64,000 nucleotides of DNA from Methanomicrobiales archaeon HGW-Methanomicrobiales-1. GTDB lineage: Archaea; Halobacteriota; Methanomicrobia; Methanomicrobiales; Methanospirillaceae. The stretch covers positions 124,736 to 188,735 of the forward strand of contig PGYM01000001.1 in the NCBI GenBank assembly GCA_002839675.1. The letters are read 5' to 3'. Below, one piece after another: positions 44,736 to 51,970 of the stretch. The notes under the pieces are model-generated. The model was not told the DNA's origin. It was given only the letters and a program-made list of their open reading frames with translations, and did no database searches. A program made the position numbers and the translations under genes. Position 1 is the first letter of the stretch, and each line of letters opens with the position of its first letter.

Positions 44736-45287
44736 TTAAATCTGTTTTAACATTTGTTCAAGGAATACAACTCCTCTCTCTACATTTTCCATGGTTTTTC
44801 CCCCGGTAAGGATTATTTTTCCTGATGAAAAGATAAGAACAACAATTTTTGGATCTGCTATACGGTATACTAACCCGGGAAACTGTTCCGGTTCATATTC
44901 GATATTTTCCACATTGAGCGTGATAACGACCTTATTGAGGTTAATGTACTTTTTGAGGTCATAGGAACAGACCATATTGGTAATGGCCACACTCGGTTTA
45001 TCATGGCAGATTACTCCGGCCTCTTTCATTTTCTGGATGAGAACCTTCTGGCCACGGACCAAATCCTCCGGGCTTTTGGCGCCGGTTAATACTACCTTTC
45101 CCGAAGAAAATACGAGTACCGCGATTTTGGGGTCCTGAAGGCGTAATACTGCACCGGGAAATCGTTTTTTATTGAGGTCGCAGCTGTCTATTTTGGCAGA
45201 GAGCATCTCAAGATCGATCGAATCAGCGACAGATCCCGAAGCAACAATATTTTCGATCTTTGGAGACTGACCTTTTTCTTTATTCAT
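44736..45287 (-). CDS. tbp: TATA-box-binding protein
   Basis: TBP binds the archaeal TATA box and with TFB recruits RNA polymerase. The 183-residue protein shows the two-fold repeat: KRFPGAVLRLQDPKIAVLVFSSGKVVLTG-like in the first half and EQFPGLVYRIADPKIVVLIFSSGKIILTG-like in the second. Both saddle halves are complete, with EDLVRGQKVLIQKMKE helices. The protein has a short acidic-poor N terminus. Upstream, after about 95 bases, begins the large G/C-rich hairpin array. No clear ribosome site precedes the ATG. Methanogens often have more than one TBP; whether this is the main one is not visible. Confidence 0.96.
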   Translation of the reverse strand: MNKEKGQSPKIENIVASGSVADSIDLEMLSAKIDSCDLNKKRFPGAVLRLQDPKIAVLVFSSGKVVLTGAKSPEDLVRGQKVLIQKMKEAGVICHDKPSVAITNMVCSYDLKKYINLNKVVITLNVENIEYEPEQFPGLVYRIADPKIVVLIFSSGKIILTGGKTMENVERGVVFLEQMLKQI

Positions 45288-45384
45288 GATGGTTAGATGG
45301 GTAGGATGATGGCAAGGTGTTATCGGTCAATTGTTTCCCGGTCTTACCGGCACCGGTAGTTTTGGTCGTTGCGCGATCTGAGAA

Positions 45385-46020
45385 TGGGGGGTCTCTCCCT
45401 TTTTTTGAGGGGGGGAGGGGGGGCTGTATACCCCCTCTCATTTTTTGGAGAGGGGGAGGGGGTGGTACCCTGTCTTGGACAAGAGGGGGGGTAGGGTAGG
45501 CTGTATACCCCCGCTCATTTTTTGGAGAGGGGGAGGGGGTCCCCCCCACTCGTACGGATGAGAGGGGGTATCCCCCCCTCATAACCCCCCCTCCACAAAA
45601 ACCCCTCTCCGGCGTGACTCCACAAGATGCCGTGGCCCGGTGCCTGCACCCGGAGGGGGGGAGGTACCCTGTCTTTGTGCAGACAAGGGGGGAGGGGGTC
45701 CCCCCCTCACTTTTTGGAGAGGGGGTGGGTATACCCCCCCTCGTTTTTTTGACAGGGGGGTAGGGTACCCCCTCTCGTACTTTTGAGTGGGGGGTACCCC
45801 CCTCCGGGATCGGGCTGAGGGGAAGGCCCCTGCGTCGTGACTCCAGCGGAAACCGTGGCGGGGCACGTGCAGGGAAGGGGGGGTGGTACCCTGTCTTTGG
45901 CAAGAGGGGGTGTGTGGTGGGGTGGATACCCCCCCTCGGGTTTTGGAGAGGGGGGTGGGGGACCCCCCCGCTTGGGGTTTGGAGTGTGGGGACCTCCCCT
46001 CCCGGAATTTTGGGTGAGGG
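45385..46020. repeat. Tandem array of G/C-rich hairpins upstream of tbp
   Basis: About 640 bases built of ten or so degenerate units. Each is a pyrimidine run (CCCCCTCTC-like), a T-rich loop (ATTTTTTG) and the complementary purine run (GAGAGGGGG); the pair at 45431-45439 and 45448-45456 is perfect. A larger unit is superimposed. GGTACCCTGTCTT recurs at 45464, 45663 and 45885 (199 and 222 apart), and CGTGACTCCA at 45613 and 45836 (223 apart). G-runs of five or more recur throughout, so G-quadruplexes are possible as well as stems. The rest of 45288-46161 has no gene; the long reading frame across the array is an effect of its composition. Confidence 0.8.
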
Positions 46021-46161
46021 AATGGATCTATATGCGAAGCGGGAGTTGAATCGATGCAACCTGAAGGGGTGGAATGATGTATTTTGTCAAACCAAGGGGT
46101 CAACACTTTCACTTCACATGCCCTCATGTTTATTATGGTGAGATTTAAATGAAAATCAGAA

Positions 46162-46521
46162 ATGAATTCCCGCGAGCATATTTTCATCGGAATTATCGCA
46201 TTTTTCATGTATGCTTATTTTATCGGTAACATTGTCAGTTCAATAAACAATGCGTTGATTTGGGGAGCAGCAGCAGTTGTAATTGGTTCGATTATTCCCG
46301 ATTTTATTGAACCTGCTACCAGTTACCGGCACCGGGGATTCTTCCATAGTTTCGGGACATTAGTTGTCATTTTTTGCCTGTTCGGTTTAACAGCACTGAT
46401 TGCTCTCGGTATCGCATTCTTTTCAGAATTTTCAGCTTTCTATCTGGCATCGTGCTTTTTCCTTGGGTATCTGTTCCACTTGTTAGCAGATTCAATAACT
46501 CCGATGGGATTGCCGCGGTAG
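46162..46521 (+). CDS. YdjM/DUF457-like membrane metal-dependent hydrolase
   Basis: A 119-residue membrane protein with about three or four helices. Conserved polar residues of the YdjM/DUF457 family are present: REHIFIG near the start, IIPDFIEP, SYRHRGFFHS and GYLFHLLADSITPMG. The His and Asp residues of these motifs cluster near the membrane surface and are thought to bind metal; no reaction is established. It is shorter than many relatives (about 150-200 aa), so the C terminus may be reduced. It is the first gene right of the hairpin array. Confidence 0.8.
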   Translation: MNSREHIFIGIIAFFMYAYFIGNIVSSINNALIWGAAAVVIGSIIPDFIEPATSYRHRGFFHSFGTLVVIFCLFGLTALIALGIAFFSEFSAFYLASCFFLGYLFHLLADSITPMGLPR

Positions 46522-46606
46522 GGGATGACTGATATGAATAGAAGAGAATGTTCTCGAATTTTTATACCTACTGCTTTTATCGTCATAAAATATAAAGCAA
46601 AATTAC

Positions 46607-47788
46607 ATGGATAAAAACAATTTAATTGAATACGAACTTCATGAACAAGATCAATTTGAAAAATATGAATCCATTGTTGATAGAATCCCCAAGTTGGATA
46701 GTCCTGTGTTTAATATCTCATGTCCAACACCATCAATTTGGAGTCAGATAGCATTCGCAGGAACTGTCGTTTTTCCCTTAAGTCCAATGAATCAAGCAAC
46801 TTTTGAAAATGCGTATAATATTTCAATAAATGATATTGCTGAGTTTGTAAAATTTGTTAAAGATACAAATAAAGTCCAATTTGTATTATCAGAGCCCCCC
46901 ATATCATATGCCGGGCTTGATTACTTAGATCCAATTTTAGAAGAACTCGCACCGCCGGTTTATGCAATGAATAAAAATTATCAAAATACTGCAATGCAGC
47001 AAAGTTTTGACCAATCTGAAAAGGATCTTGATTCTATACTCAAAATAGTATTAAGGAAAATCCCAGATCCCTCGATAAAAAGTCATTTCCGTAAGGATTA
47101 CATTCGGCAATATGCCTTTTTAAAGCATTTCGGTTTTACTGAACTAAGTGAGCAATTTTTTGACACAATACTAATTGATCCAGAATTTGCAACCAAGAAC
47201 CTCGAATTTGCATATTCTATGTTGGTTCATCCTCTTATTGACCCGTTTAAAGCAAATCCTGTTGTTCCATTAGAGATGATCCAAAACACCAGAACGTTGA
47301 ATGTATCAACAAAAATCGACCCAAAAAATGTATTTATCCCGGAAGTTGGCAATTTCCTGTTAAAAAAGACAACACAATATCCGGATAGTCTGCATGCGTG
47401 CAAATGTGTCATTGCTGATTATAAAAAGAATGATTTATACTCTGTATATTCTGCCTTAAATGAAGCAGTTATTGATAAGAATTCAACAAAAATTATTGAA
47501 AATAAAAATGAGTTAGAAGAAATAATGGATAATGTTTGGCATGATACCGCAATACAAGGAAATAAGGCCAAATGTAAATTGGGTGTCGATGTCATTTGTG
47601 GAATTGTAGGTTTCAGTATCGGTAGTTTAGGTGGACTTATTGGATCTATTGGGGGTGCAACGGCTGGTTTTGCAGCGTCAAGGGCAACACAATCCCCAGT
47701 ACTAGATAAGTATGTTGAATCAATTGCAAAAAAAATTGCCAAACCCTATATGGTAAAAATATATGATTTTCAAAAAATTATTCGATAA
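46607..47788 (+). CDS. AT-rich orphan protein, 393 aa
   Basis: I do not recognise this protein. It is Lys/Asn/Ile rich and its codons are much more A/T rich than flanking genes, suggesting transfer. The N-terminal two thirds look like a soluble alpha/beta fold. Near the C terminus a Gly-rich hydrophobic stretch (about 333-360: CGIVGFSIGSLGGLIGSIGG) resembles a glycine zipper or membrane hairpin, followed by a short Lys-rich tail. Such an arrangement occurs in some toxins and membrane-active effectors, but nothing else here supports that. It stands alone, between a DUF457 gene and a NucS-like gene on the other strand. Confidence 0.7.
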   Translation: MDKNNLIEYELHEQDQFEKYESIVDRIPKLDSPVFNISCPTPSIWSQIAFAGTVVFPLSPMNQATFENAYNISINDIAEFVKFVKDTNKVQFVLSEPPISYAGLDYLDPILEELAPPVYAMNKNYQNTAMQQSFDQSEKDLDSILKIVLRKIPDPSIKSHFRKDYIRQYAFLKHFGFTELSEQFFDTILIDPEFATKNLEFAYSMLVHPLIDPFKANPVVPLEMIQNTRTLNVSTKIDPKNVFIPEVGNFLLKKTTQYPDSLHACKCVIADYKKNDLYSVYSALNEAVIDKNSTKIIENKNELEEIMDNVWHDTAIQGNKAKCKLGVDVICGIVGFSIGSLGGLIGSIGGATAGFAASRATQSPVLDKYVESIAKKIAKPYMVKIYDFQKIIR

Positions 47789-47840
47789 TACAATAACTGT
47801 GTTGAGTGATTTAACAACAATTATTAATTGAGATTCTCAC

Positions 47841-48755
47841 TTACATTTTGTCGTAACTCTGGGCTATCAGCGGTTTTGCTTTTTCAAGGTCATTATCTGT
47901 TTTTATGACAAGTTCCAGATTGCCCGTTCCCCAATGTCCAATGTCGCTAACATCGCGGGAAAATCCTTTTTCAAGAGTAATCGTGTTGGGATCAATTTTC
48001 AGATACACTTTAAGTTCCTTTTTCTGGGGGAAAATTTCAACACATGCAAAATTGTTGATCCGTTTGAAGGCAATGTAATATTTCAGAATTTTTACCTGGA
48101 CATCATCTCCAAGAGCTTCGGCATATGATTTCAATGACTCATATATATCGCAGAGTTCTGTGTCACAAGAGTCCATTTGCTCTGAAACTGTTTTGTAAAT
48201 TGTCTCTTTCTTTTCCCCATCTTTTAAAATTGTCAAACCGTTAGAATCTGCATTTTTCACATTGACAAGTTCCAGAAGAAAAAGATCAGGATAATAGTTG
48301 CGATATCTGATGAGCTCGATATTGCGATTGATTTGTTGGATTGCATGAATGTCATACTTGGTAAAATCACCAGCAATACATAGTAACCGGGGACTACTCC
48401 ATTCGATTATATTAGCAATGTCTTTACCGAATTTTTTCTGGACTGCAAGCTCGAACTCTGCTTTATGATCGAGAAGCCAGTCGAGATAGTAAAGACCCTG
48501 GTTGATAACATTCTCGTTCATCGCACGCTTGAACTCAATAATCACCGGGCACCCGTTTTCATCTATACCCAATGTATCGATTCGGCCTCCGTGTGTTTTT
48601 CCGGTGGAGTATTCCGTTGCCAGAAACCGTACACCCAGAAGATCATTGAGTTGAGATTCCATGAATGACTGGAGAGATCTTTCAATCGAGGATGATGATC
48701 CCTGAAGCTCTGAAACGGCCTTGCCGTTTATTTTAAAAAGTCTGATGTCTCCCAT
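47841..48755 (-). CDS. PD-(D/E)XK nuclease-like protein with DUF5655 domain
   Basis: The N-terminal part (about 20-130) fits a NucS/DUF91-type PD-(D/E)XK nuclease: Asp60 in GGRIDTLGID, Glu74-x-Lys76 in VIIEFKR, and Gln86 in NQGLYYLDWL, all in the order expected for an active site. The C-terminal 110 residues match the DUF5655 pattern (YIAFKRINNFACVEIFPQKKELKVYLK). Proteins of this class are often found in accessory islands near restriction genes, and a role in DNA processing or defence is likely but not proven. It is A/T rich for this genome. It lies 2 bases after the R-M remnant on the same strand. Confidence 0.82.
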   Translation of the reverse strand: MGDIRLFKINGKAVSELQGSSSSIERSLQSFMESQLNDLLGVRFLATEYSTGKTHGGRIDTLGIDENGCPVIIEFKRAMNENVINQGLYYLDWLLDHKAEFELAVQKKFGKDIANIIEWSSPRLLCIAGDFTKYDIHAIQQINRNIELIRYRNYYPDLFLLELVNVKNADSNGLTILKDGEKKETIYKTVSEQMDSCDTELCDIYESLKSYAEALGDDVQVKILKYYIAFKRINNFACVEIFPQKKELKVYLKIDPNTITLEKGFSRDVSDIGHWGTGNLELVIKTDNDLEKAKPLIAQSYDKM

Positions 48756-48757
48756 AT

Positions 48758-49048
48758 TTACTCCTGAACTGGATTGTGTGGAACTGTAGTTCCTTCAACA
48801 ATCGCAATCTCTTCTACCGTCAGCCCGTACAACTCGTACACCAGCGCATCGATCGCCGCATCCGCCGCCTCAACCTGCCGGGACAGCAGCGTCTTCTCAT
48901 GATTGAGGGACTGGTCCATCTCTGGTGATACCATTACTAGTGTGTCACGCTTATGACCGTTAAATATGTTGAAATATATTTCAGTTGGGAATTGATAACC
49001 CGACAAAGGAAAAATAACCCTCTTAGTATAGTGCAAAACCACCCGCAC
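48758..49048 (-). pseudogene. Remnant of a type IIG/Eco57I-like restriction-methylase C terminus
   Basis: Only the last 45 residues of this 96-codon frame look protein-like: SRQVEAADAAIDALVYELYGLTVEEIAIVEG. This is the tail motif of many N6-adenine methylase/type IIG restriction enzymes. The upstream half does not resemble such an enzyme, and no methylase motif (NPPY) or nuclease domain is found nearby. I read this as the stub of a deleted enzyme. It may still be translated as a short protein. Confidence 0.65.
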
Positions 49049-49102
49049 CCGGTCCCTATACTATACACATAGATCGCGAATCCAGAAATCCAAAATCATG
49101 AT

Positions 49103-50443
49103 CTAATCTCCACCATTTTTCTGCACCTTCCCCTTCCCCCGGTACATAAACACCTGCCGCTTGCCATCCTGGTATTTCTTCAGCTTCCCCTTCTCCTCAA
49201 GCAGCAGGAGATCGGTTCTCGCAGTGGGTAAGGACACCTTGTATTTCCCGGCAATCTCGCTGATGGTGTAGTACCGGGTCGGGTACCGGATGAAGTCCCG
49301 GAGAATCTCTGCCTGGCGGAATGACAGGTCGGGAATCTGTTCAACGAGATGGAGTGATGCCGATTCTTCCTGCTTCCTGTGGATGATATACTGTTTCAGG
49401 TCCTCCAGTGCCCGGCCGATGATCTGGATATTGAAATCAATGAAATAAGTCATGTCGTTGCTGTCGGTCTCGGTCAGCAGGTAGGCCCGGGCGTACTGGG
49501 CCGGTGCATGCACGAAGATCCGCGAGATCGAGATGTATTCCAGCAGGTCATAGTGATGCTTGAGGGCAAACCAGTAGAAGAGCGCCCGGGCGGTCCTGCC
49601 GTTACCGTCATTGAACGGGTGGATGTACCCGATCAGGAAATGGATGATAATCGCTTTGACAATCGGGTGAATGAATTCATCGTCACTATTGGCAAATGCA
49701 ATGAGATCATCCATCATTGCCGGGATTTTCCTGCACTCGGGCGGGTAATGGTAGATCTTTGTCGGGTCTGCTTTGCTGCCTACAACAATATCATCACAGG
49801 TCCGGAATTCCGTTTCATCGGCTTCGCTCTCTAAGGTCCCCTGGGTGATCTCATGGTGGATCTCTAAGATGAGTTCCCGGGACAATGGCTTGTCCCGCAG
49901 CTCCTTGAGGCGGCGGATCGTCTGGTAGTTGTTGACGATCATCCGTTCGGAAGTGTTTTTCGGCTTCCTTCCTTCCCGCAGGATCTTCTTGGCTTCCGGC
50001 CGGGTTGTCGCGGCCCCTTCAAGCTGGCTTGAAGCGATGGCTTCCTCCATCAGGGAATTTGCGAGATATTGTTTCTTATTCGCCTCACTGGGAAATTCTC
50101 CAAACAGCCAGTCGAAAGATGCAGGGGATGCCTTATCGATGCGGTGGAGTTGTTTCTGGAATGTTTCCGGGGAGTAGAAGAGGAATTTTTCATCTCCGAT
50201 CTTTATCCTTCGGTACTTGGTCCTGCGTTGGTCTTTTATCGCGTACCAGAACAGGGTAGGGTCATAGGGGATTTTTTTTCGACGGAGATCGTCCCAGTGT
50301 ATATACTCTGATTCATTGTATTTGCGGATCAAATGGCGGATCTCTTTGGATTCCTCCCCCTCTGAGAAAAAAATTGAAGCAAAGGACTCATACTCCTCCG
50401 AGAAACTTCCCTTTATATCCGGTGGCTTTTGAGGTATCTTCAT
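49103..50443 (-). CDS. Fic-domain AMPylase with self-inhibitory helix and winged helix
   Basis: Fic proteins transfer AMP or other groups to target hydroxyls. The active-site motif HPFNDGNGRTAR is complete at 275-286. An N-terminal inhibitory motif (S/T)xxxE(G/N) is present at 138-143 (SSQLEG), so it is a self-inhibited class II Fic. Residues 80-115 resemble the Fic_N segment. The C-terminal 60 residues form a winged helix (LSFRQAEILRDFIRYPTRYY then GKYKVSLPTARTDLLLLEEK), suggesting control of its own transcription. No separate antitoxin gene is adjacent, in keeping with the built-in inhibitor. It sits in an accessory region with RhuM. Confidence 0.93.
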   Translation of the reverse strand: MKIPQKPPDIKGSFSEEYESFASIFFSEGEESKEIRHLIRKYNESEYIHWDDLRRKKIPYDPTLFWYAIKDQRRTKYRRIKIGDEKFLFYSPETFQKQLHRIDKASPASFDWLFGEFPSEANKKQYLANSLMEEAIASSQLEGAATTRPEAKKILREGRKPKNTSERMIVNNYQTIRRLKELRDKPLSRELILEIHHEITQGTLESEADETEFRTCDDIVVGSKADPTKIYHYPPECRKIPAMMDDLIAFANSDDEFIHPIVKAIIIHFLIGYIHPFNDGNGRTARALFYWFALKHHYDLLEYISISRIFVHAPAQYARAYLLTETDSNDMTYFIDFNIQIIGRALEDLKQYIIHRKQEESASLHLVEQIPDLSFRQAEILRDFIRYPTRYYTISEIAGKYKVSLPTARTDLLLLEEKGKLKKYQDGKRQVFMYRGKGKVQKNGGD

Positions 50444-50932
50444 CCCGCACCTGACCTACTATCATCTACTAAACTCTGTAAATTCTTACAAGATTTACAG
50501 GTATTTACAGATTGATTGGTGGAGGAAGAACAAAAAGGTTCTGTAAATTACTGAAAAATTTTCAGGTTCTTTCAAAGCCAAATAAACACTGACTTGTTAT
50601 TCTCTCTAATTTAGATCGCACAATCCGCAGTCACGATTTGCTCCCATCATTTTTGCCGCACCCCCCCGCCCCTCTCCCGAATCCGGCCCCATAAAACGCT
50701 CCGTTACAAATCACGCAGCCGCGCCCGGATCCACAATCCCCCCGCCACCAAATCCGACCGTAATCCAAGCCCCGATTCCCGCATACTTGCCAGAATAACT
50801 GCGAAAAAACCTGGTTTCAGACCCTGTTGTTGACGCCAACAAAACGATCCCACATTTATTTTCACCCCACGGTAATACACTATAAAAGGCCAAACATCCG
50901 GTTAAGACTAAGGAAGCGATGGTGATAAACGA
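50444..50932. other. Non-coding gap upstream of rhuM with left repeat copy
   Basis: This 489-base gap holds the left 158-bp direct repeat and no gene I can support. To the left of it are short A/T-rich stretches that may be the Fic promoter on the minus strand, with the repeated words GTAAATT and TTTACAG near 50477-50548. To the right, GGTGAT at 50921 is the ribosome site of rhuM. Confidence 0.4.
50652..50809 (+). repeat. 158-bp direct repeat, left copy
   Basis: Compared with 52008-52165 this stretch is the same length and nearly identical at both ends (TTTGCCGCACCCCCC at the left; CCGATTCCCGCATACTTGCC then AGAATAACTGCGAAAAAA at the right), with scattered differences in the middle. Together the copies bracket rhuM. 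Confidence 0.85.
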
Positions 50933-51970
50933 TTGAGCGATAACCCAGTTCCGGAACCGGTGACCCGTTCCCAGATTCTCTTTTACCAGTCCGAAAACGG
51001 GACAAGCCGTATTGAGGTTCGGCTCGAAGAAGGAACGGTATGGCTCACCCAAGCACTCCTCGCTGAACTCTACCAGATAACCAAACAGAATGTCAGCCTC
51101 CATATCAGGAATATTCTGGCAGAGGGAGAACACTCGCGGACAGCAACTGTCAAGGAATACTTGACAGTTCAAAATGAAGGGACCCGAACCGTTCAGCGCT
51201 CTATTGAATACTACAATCTTGACATGATCCTCGCCATTGGCTACCGCGTCCGTTCCCCCCGGGGCACGCAGTTCCGCAGGTGGGCGACCGAACGGTTGAG
51301 CGAATACCTCATCAAAGGATTCGTACTCGATGACGAGCGGCTCAGGGAAGGAAAGAGCATCGGTGCGGACTACTTCGATGAACTGCTCGAACGCATCCGG
51401 GATATCCGGGCATCCGAGAAGCGGTTCTACCAGAAGATTAAGGATATTTATACGCTCGCGATCGATTACGATCCGCATGCGGAAACAACGCTCGGGTTTT
51501 TCAGGATCGTGCAGAACAAGCTGCATTGGGCAATCACCGGCCATACCGCTGCGGAGATTATTGCAGAACGGGCCGATGCATCCCTGCCGAATATGGGGCT
51601 TACTGCCTGGAAAGGGGCAAAGGTGAGAAAGAGCGATGTCACCGTTGCGAAAAATTACCTTGACGAGACGGAGATCCGGCAGCTCAATCGCATCATCACC
51701 ATGTATCTCGATTATGCCGAGACCCAGGCCGAACGAAAACAGCCCGTGTACATGATCGAGTGGAGAGAGAAACTGGATAATTTCCTCAAATTCAATGAGC
51801 GGGAAATTCTTGAGGATGCCGGGAAAATATCCATGGAAATTGCACAGCACCTCGCATTAGAAGAATTTGAAAAATTTTCCCTGCGCCGGCTCGCTGAAGA
51901 AAATGCGTCTTCCGATACAGAGTTCGAGGCTGCTGCAAAAATGATTGAGCACAAGAAACGCGGGAACTAA
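50933..51970 (+). CDS. rhuM: RhuM-family protein
   Basis: RhuM-family proteins (named after a Salmonella pathogenicity-island gene) are widespread in accessory DNA, but their function is unknown. The 345-residue protein has the typical N-terminal KilA-N/BRO-like stretch (VWLTQALLAELYQITKQNVSLHIRNIL), then DMILAIGYRVRSPRGTQFRRWA and a conserved helical region (YTLAIDYDPHAETTLGFFRIVQNKLHWAITG). It begins with TTG 50933, 6 bases after GGTGAT. It is flanked by 158-bp direct repeats and no other gene lies between them, so it looks like a single-gene cassette. DNA binding is likely from the N-terminal domain. Confidence 0.93.
   Translation: MSDNPVPEPVTRSQILFYQSENGTSRIEVRLEEGTVWLTQALLAELYQITKQNVSLHIRNILAEGEHSRTATVKEYLTVQNEGTRTVQRSIEYYNLDMILAIGYRVRSPRGTQFRRWATERLSEYLIKGFVLDDERLREGKSIGADYFDELLERIRDIRASEKRFYQKIKDIYTLAIDYDPHAETTLGFFRIVQNKLHWAITGHTAAEIIAERADASLPNMGLTAWKGAKVRKSDVTVAKNYLDETEIRQLNRIITMYLDYAETQAERKQPVYMIEWREKLDNFLKFNEREILEDAGKISMEIAQHLALEEFEKFSLRRLAEENASSDTEFEAAAKMIEHKKRGN

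What the first reader, a model, noticed from the sequence alone, without database searches (positions are those of the whole stretch)
45385..46020. Large array of hairpins and G-runs upstream of the TATA-binding-protein gene
About ten imperfect G/C-rich palindromes with T-rich loops stand in tandem, with a higher-order repeat (GGTACCCTGTCTT at 45464, 45663 and 45885). The array begins about 95 bases upstream of tbp. Its G-runs could form quadruplexes and its arms stable stems. It may be an accumulated repeat element, a replication or recombination hot spot, a nucleoid-protein site or part of tbp control. It also marks the left edge of the accessory region.
Basis: seen in the sequence. Interest (0 to 1): 0.65.

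Follow-up and report, generated by a model that had tools for sequence, protein, structure and literature searches.

The report
Dispersed three-part palindromic repeat of methanogens
The hairpin array beside the tbp gene is one of about fourteen copies, in this methanogen's genome, of a fast-changing non-coding DNA repeat that recurs between genes in related species, and it is not a special control element of tbp.

Summary
In detail: window 45386-46020 is an array of G/C-rich hairpins (DNA fold z = -4.3 against shuffles). It is not peculiar to tbp. Thirteen two-linker copies plus a one-linker relative lie dispersed between unrelated genes in this genome. Each two-linker copy has three hairpin domains joined by two ~50-bp linkers, whose core TCCA-N3-GAA-N16-TG is conserved by sequence rather than by pairing. 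The linker occurs in at least 15 of 39 genomes of the genus, and hairpin arrays with related linkers in a sister genus. Orthologous tbp paralogs in three other species have no array. At shared sites (downstream of a LEA14-like gene; 3' of tRNA-Ser(GGA)) species carry an array, a remnant or nothing. Arrays at different sites of one genome tend to resemble each other more than arrays at the same site in different species. Stem mismatches show no RNA-strand bias; G4 motifs do not exceed shuffles. Best reading: a non-coding, dispersed, compound palindromic repeat family, copied or homogenised within genomes and repeatedly lost; the linker is probably a protein site. It resembles REP/BIME or MITE repeats, but no Y1 transposase was found in the four richest genomes and no parent transposon was identified. 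How it spreads, and whether cells use it, is open.

The parts
45386..45603 (+). Domain A: first array of G/C-rich hairpin units
   Evidence: sequence; repeat families D1/D2; matches other copies
45604..45653 (+). Linker 1, containing CTCCGGCGTGACTCCACAAGATGCCGTGGCCCGGTGCCTGCACCCGGAG; conserved sequence with the TCCA-N3-GA(A) core
   Evidence: R1 hit 45606-45676, 67 bits; R3 hit 45606-45652; alignments A1, A3, A4
45654..45826 (+). Domain B: second hairpin array; begins with a G-run followed by AGGTACCCTGTCTT; units of about 34 nt
   Evidence: (34-bp period at 45696-45796)
45827..45876 (+). Linker 2, containing GTGACTCCAGCGGAAACCGTGGCGGGGCACGTGCA
   Evidence: R1 hit 45829-45898, 63.8 bits; R3 hit 45832-45876
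45877..46020 (+). Domain C: third hairpin array; begins with a G-run followed by TGGTACCCTGTCTT
   Evidence: matches other copies
44736..45287 (-). Neighbour, not part of the element: a TATA-binding-protein paralog (one of 4 TBP matches in this genome)
   Evidence: Pfam TBP E 1.8e-53; 4 matches in G000

Best explanation
The array is one copy of a non-coding, dispersed, compound palindromic repeat family of this archaeal family. A full copy is three hairpin-rich DNA domains separated by two conserved ~50-bp linkers. Shown: multiple dispersed copies, conserved architecture, species-specific similarity among copies, and presence/remnant/absence at shared sites. Inferred: the family spreads or is homogenised by copying in trans, either transposition-like or by gene conversion between copies; the linker (TCCA-N3-GAA-N16-TG) is the site a protein recognises; the palindromic arms act as DNA hairpins or cruciforms that recombine and change quickly. 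The copy next to tbp is probably a lineage-specific insertion without a dedicated role in tbp control.
For: 13 two-linker copies plus one one-linker copy in G000, all placed between ORFs by a greedy ORF scan and beside different genes. Linker model hits in 15 of 39 genus genomes; hairpin arrays with linkers in the sister genus g15, model hits in 5 of 8 genomes at E<=0.01. tbp orthologs without an array. Site polymorphism: LEA14 site; c210 site full in G000, empty in G004, remnant-like in G023; tRNA-Ser site. Different sites of one genome score 39, 34, 29 and 19, against a median of 11.6 for the same site between genomes (close species pairs score higher). Arms differ more than flanks and linkers at shared sites (by inspection). 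Linker-to-linker distances are not all multiples of three and the ORFs through the array match no Pfam family, so it is not coding. Stem mismatches G-T versus A-C are 33:37 and 19:23, no RNA-strand signature.
Against: No mobilising enzyme was identified; Y1 transposases are absent from the four genomes richest in copies. Element ends are not sharply defined and no target-site duplication was recognised by eye. Orientation is the same in nine of ten genomes with linker hits 3' of tRNA-Ser, which fits old residence and perhaps maintenance rather than repeated insertion. The linker stays conserved where arms do not, which could mean a host function. Domain outer stems are only modestly supported (permutation P 0.015 overall; 0.056 own genome, 0.20 other species).
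Confidence: 0.62

Rival explanations
1. The arrays are host-maintained architectural sites: a nucleoid, condensin or cruciform-binding protein recognises the linker and/or the hairpins, so architecture is kept while the arms drift.
For: Sequence-conserved bipartite linker without support for pairing; long residence at tRNA-Ser(GGA) and LEA14 sites in several species; no RNA-strand bias.
Against: Arrays absent or remnant at the same sites in many congeners; no linker hit in 24 of 39 genus genomes, though the model misses divergent copies; no fixed gene context.
Confidence: 0.2
2. The element is a large structured non-coding RNA family.
For: Strong folding; fixed three-domain layout; some domains have 19-20-bp outer stems with compensatory changes such as GGTACC to GGGAGCC/GGCTCCC.
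Against: Equal G-T and A-C mismatches; RNAalifold finds no pairs in the linker and its candidate hairpin scores worse than permuted arms; no Rfam match reaches a gathering score; mixed orientation to neighbours.
Confidence: 0.08
3. REP/BIME-type elements moved by a RAYT (Y1) transposase.
For: Dispersed intergenic palindromes, mosaic blocks; the linker contains CGTC and CCA words resembling the CGTC-REP tag and tail described in PMC3733652.
Against: No Y1_Tnp match in G000, G006, G008 or G022; units of about 34 nt inside 550-640-bp compounds; about 14 loci in this genome.
Confidence: 0.06
4. Regulatory structure of this tbp gene.
For: Lies 98 bp upstream of the start codon. In relatives a conserved stretch lies further upstream of the ~70-bp leader; in G000 it is not recognisable and the array begins near there.
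Against: Orthologs in three species lack the array; the other copies have unrelated neighbours.
Confidence: 0.03

Closest known systems
REP/BIME elements (GTAG and CGTC superfamilies, PMC3733652)
   Same: Intergenic, palindromic, dispersed, mosaic, non-coding
   Different: About 14 compound loci of 550-640 bp, conserved non-palindromic linker, no Y1 transposase in the four richest genomes; no description in this archaeal group found
MITEs (review PMC10969869, only the abstract start seen)
   Same: Short, non-coding, dispersed; some copies end in an inverted pair AGGGGGGTGGTACCCTGTC / GACAGGGTACCACCCCCCT
   Different: No parent transposon or target-site duplication identified; three tandem palindromic domains
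Intrastrand-triplex repeat TM_ECO (PMC4666352)
   Same: G/C-rich repeat with C-rich and G-rich stems, dispersed in many copies
   Different: The TM_ECO pattern is not found in the array with up to 2 substitutions; this is a longer compound element with linkers

Membership tests
REP/BIME (RAYT-associated) | Y1 (RAYT/IS200-like) transposase in the genome | tested here: not met
   PF01797: no match in G000, G006, G008, G022; control genomes ring
REP/BIME (RAYT-associated) | 20-40 bp palindromes with an unpaired GTAG or CGTC tag | tested here: inconclusive
   CGTC occurs in many linkers, but no hairpin next to it is supported
MITE | Terminal inverted repeats | tested here: inconclusive
   Inverted ends seen in some copies (c2_548, c4_18, c531, c27) and not in others
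MITE | Target-site duplication | tested here: inconclusive
   None recognised by eye in the flanks; ends not sharply defined, no formal test
MITE | Parent autonomous transposon with the same ends | not tested
Rfam RNA families | Match at the curated score | tested here: not met
   None of the matches listed at E<=1 reaches its family's gathering score
Protein-coding gene | Reading frame kept across copies | tested here: not met
   Linker-to-linker distances 223, 223, 225, 222, 224, 222, 189, 256, 236, 222, 189, 185, 157 are not all multiples of 3; no Pfam match

The most novel reading that the evidence does not exclude
An undescribed archaeal DNA element type: tandem palindromic domains around a protein-recognised linker (TCCA-N3-GAA-N16-TG), found in two genera of one archaeal family, that keeps its architecture and preferred sites (such as the 3' flank of tRNA-Ser(GGA)) while its arms are homogenised within each genome by an unknown trans-acting recombination or transposition system, or that serves as a chromosome-organising site.
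Probability: 0.3. Interest if true: 0.72.

Novelty: new variant of a known kind. Interest (0 to 1): 0.5.

Why it matters
It would describe a repeat family of methanogens with two unusual properties: a conserved, non-pairing linker inside otherwise fast-changing palindromes, and signs of within-genome homogenisation of dispersed intergenic DNA in an archaeon. The linker gives a bait for finding the unknown protein that moves or binds it. It also warns that G/C-run arrays of this kind yield long spurious reading frames.

Tried and rejected
Coding: rejected (spacing not in threes, no Pfam match). G-quadruplex array: not above composition. TM_ECO triplex: pattern absent; looser triplex patterns 2 versus 0.4 in shuffles, borderline. 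Linker hairpin: matched arms fold no better than permuted ones. Linker covariation: RNAalifold gives no pairs. Exact linker pattern in viral contigs: none. Collection scan of named genomes: two hits, titled Methanomicrobiales. Assembly artefact: unlikely. Literature on repeats of this group: no paper found in the held library. Orientation and spacing of copies: looked at by eye, no bias apparent, no formal test.

Full report
Observation. The array is real. It spans 45386-46020, begins 98 bp upstream of the tbp start codon, and holds GGTACCCTGTCTT at 45464, 45663 and 45885. Its DNA fold is 4.3 sd better than shuffles. G-quadruplex motifs are not above shuffles of the same composition.

Copies in the own genome. 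BLASTN of the array found 39 matches. Fetching and reading them shows thirteen copies with the same layout: hairpin domain, linker, hairpin domain, linker, hairpin domain. The linker model added a one-linker relative beside tRNA-Ser at C2:209846; fragments lie near C1:709-710k. A greedy ORF scan puts the copies in intergenic positions with no common neighbour gene.

Linker. About 50 bp; across 36 diverse sequences the invariant or nearly invariant positions are TCCA-N3-GAA-N16-TG. No pairing in it is supported: RNAalifold finds none, and its candidate hairpin is weaker with true partners than with permuted ones. I infer a protein-binding sequence.

Domains. Many domains have complementary outer arms, some 19-20 bp long, with compensatory differences, for example GGTACC in most copies but GGGAGCC/GGCTCCC in c27. 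Matched arms pair better than permuted ones (P 0.015 overall; weaker in subsets: 0.056 and 0.20). G-T and A-C mismatches in stems are equally frequent (33:37; 19:23), which gives no sign of selection on RNA from one strand.

Distribution. BLAST finds matches in 9 of 60 relatives, all in the genus; the linker model in 15 of 39 genus genomes; across 199 genomes of the order in 14 genomes of the genus and one of a sister genus. A broader model finds matches in 5 of 8 genomes of that genus; reading these places shows G/C-run arrays around the linker, dense in some and short in others. The models miss divergent copies, such as those seen by eye, so these counts are lower bounds. Two public records with the linker are titled Methanomicrobiales archaeon.

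Relation to tbp. The window's tbp is one of four TBP matches in G000. Its nearest relatives in G021, G028 and G061 (76-79% identity) share the proximal leader but have no array.

Turnover. Downstream of a LEA14-like gene, arrays occur in G000, G004, G061, G020, G025 and G013, remnants in G008 and G001, and none in G015, G012, G031 and others. At the c210 site G000 has the element, G004 is empty and G023 has a remnant-like stretch. One further intergenic site is shared by G000 and G008; the left flank of another is shared by G000 and G022. 3' of tRNA-Ser(GGA), 11 of the 30 loci (G000, G018, G019, G020, G021, G025, G030, G031, G060, G061, G062) have dense arrays starting close to the tRNA; in G017 the array begins about 450 bp away. 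Linker hits there are on the tRNA strand in nine genomes and opposite in G061. Arrays at two sites of one genome score 39, 34, 29 and 19; the same site in different genomes has a median of 11.6, although close species pairs reach 81 and 44. This pattern fits species-specific copying or homogenisation; independent insertion at favoured sites would look similar.

Mechanism. A Y1 transposase, which would be expected for REP/RAYT or IS200-type movement, is absent from the four richest genomes. Gene conversion or an unidentified enzyme remains. Whether the host uses the element is open.

Novelty. No Rfam match at gathering score and no paper found on repeats of this group. REP/BIME and MITE are the nearest kinds; membership is not established.

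Noticed in passing
L028, L030, L033, L035 flanks of copies: Other G/C-rich repeated stretches lie just outside some copies: TACTAAGGAGGGYTCCCCGCCTCAGGG-like near c3_288, c705 and c709, and GAGGGAGCCCCCCCTGCGGGGGGTCGC-like near c531 and c27.
   Followed up: no
window 44736-45287; G000 C1:634752, C1:983595, C3:364911: Four TBP matches in this genome; most genomes of the genus have two to five.
   Followed up: partly
window 45283-46059 minus and 45582-46208 minus: Long open frames (259 and 209 aa) run through the array and match no Pfam family; they look spurious and could be mis-annotated as genes.
   Followed up: partly
window 46162-51970: To the right of the array lie genes for a YdjM-like membrane protein, a protein without Pfam match, a DUF5655/NucS-like protein, a Fic-domain protein and a RhuM-family protein.
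   Followed up: partly
L190-L194: Relatives of the gene beside copy c2_31 show in-frame stops in several congeners, perhaps alignments running past the gene end or pseudogenes.
   Followed up: no
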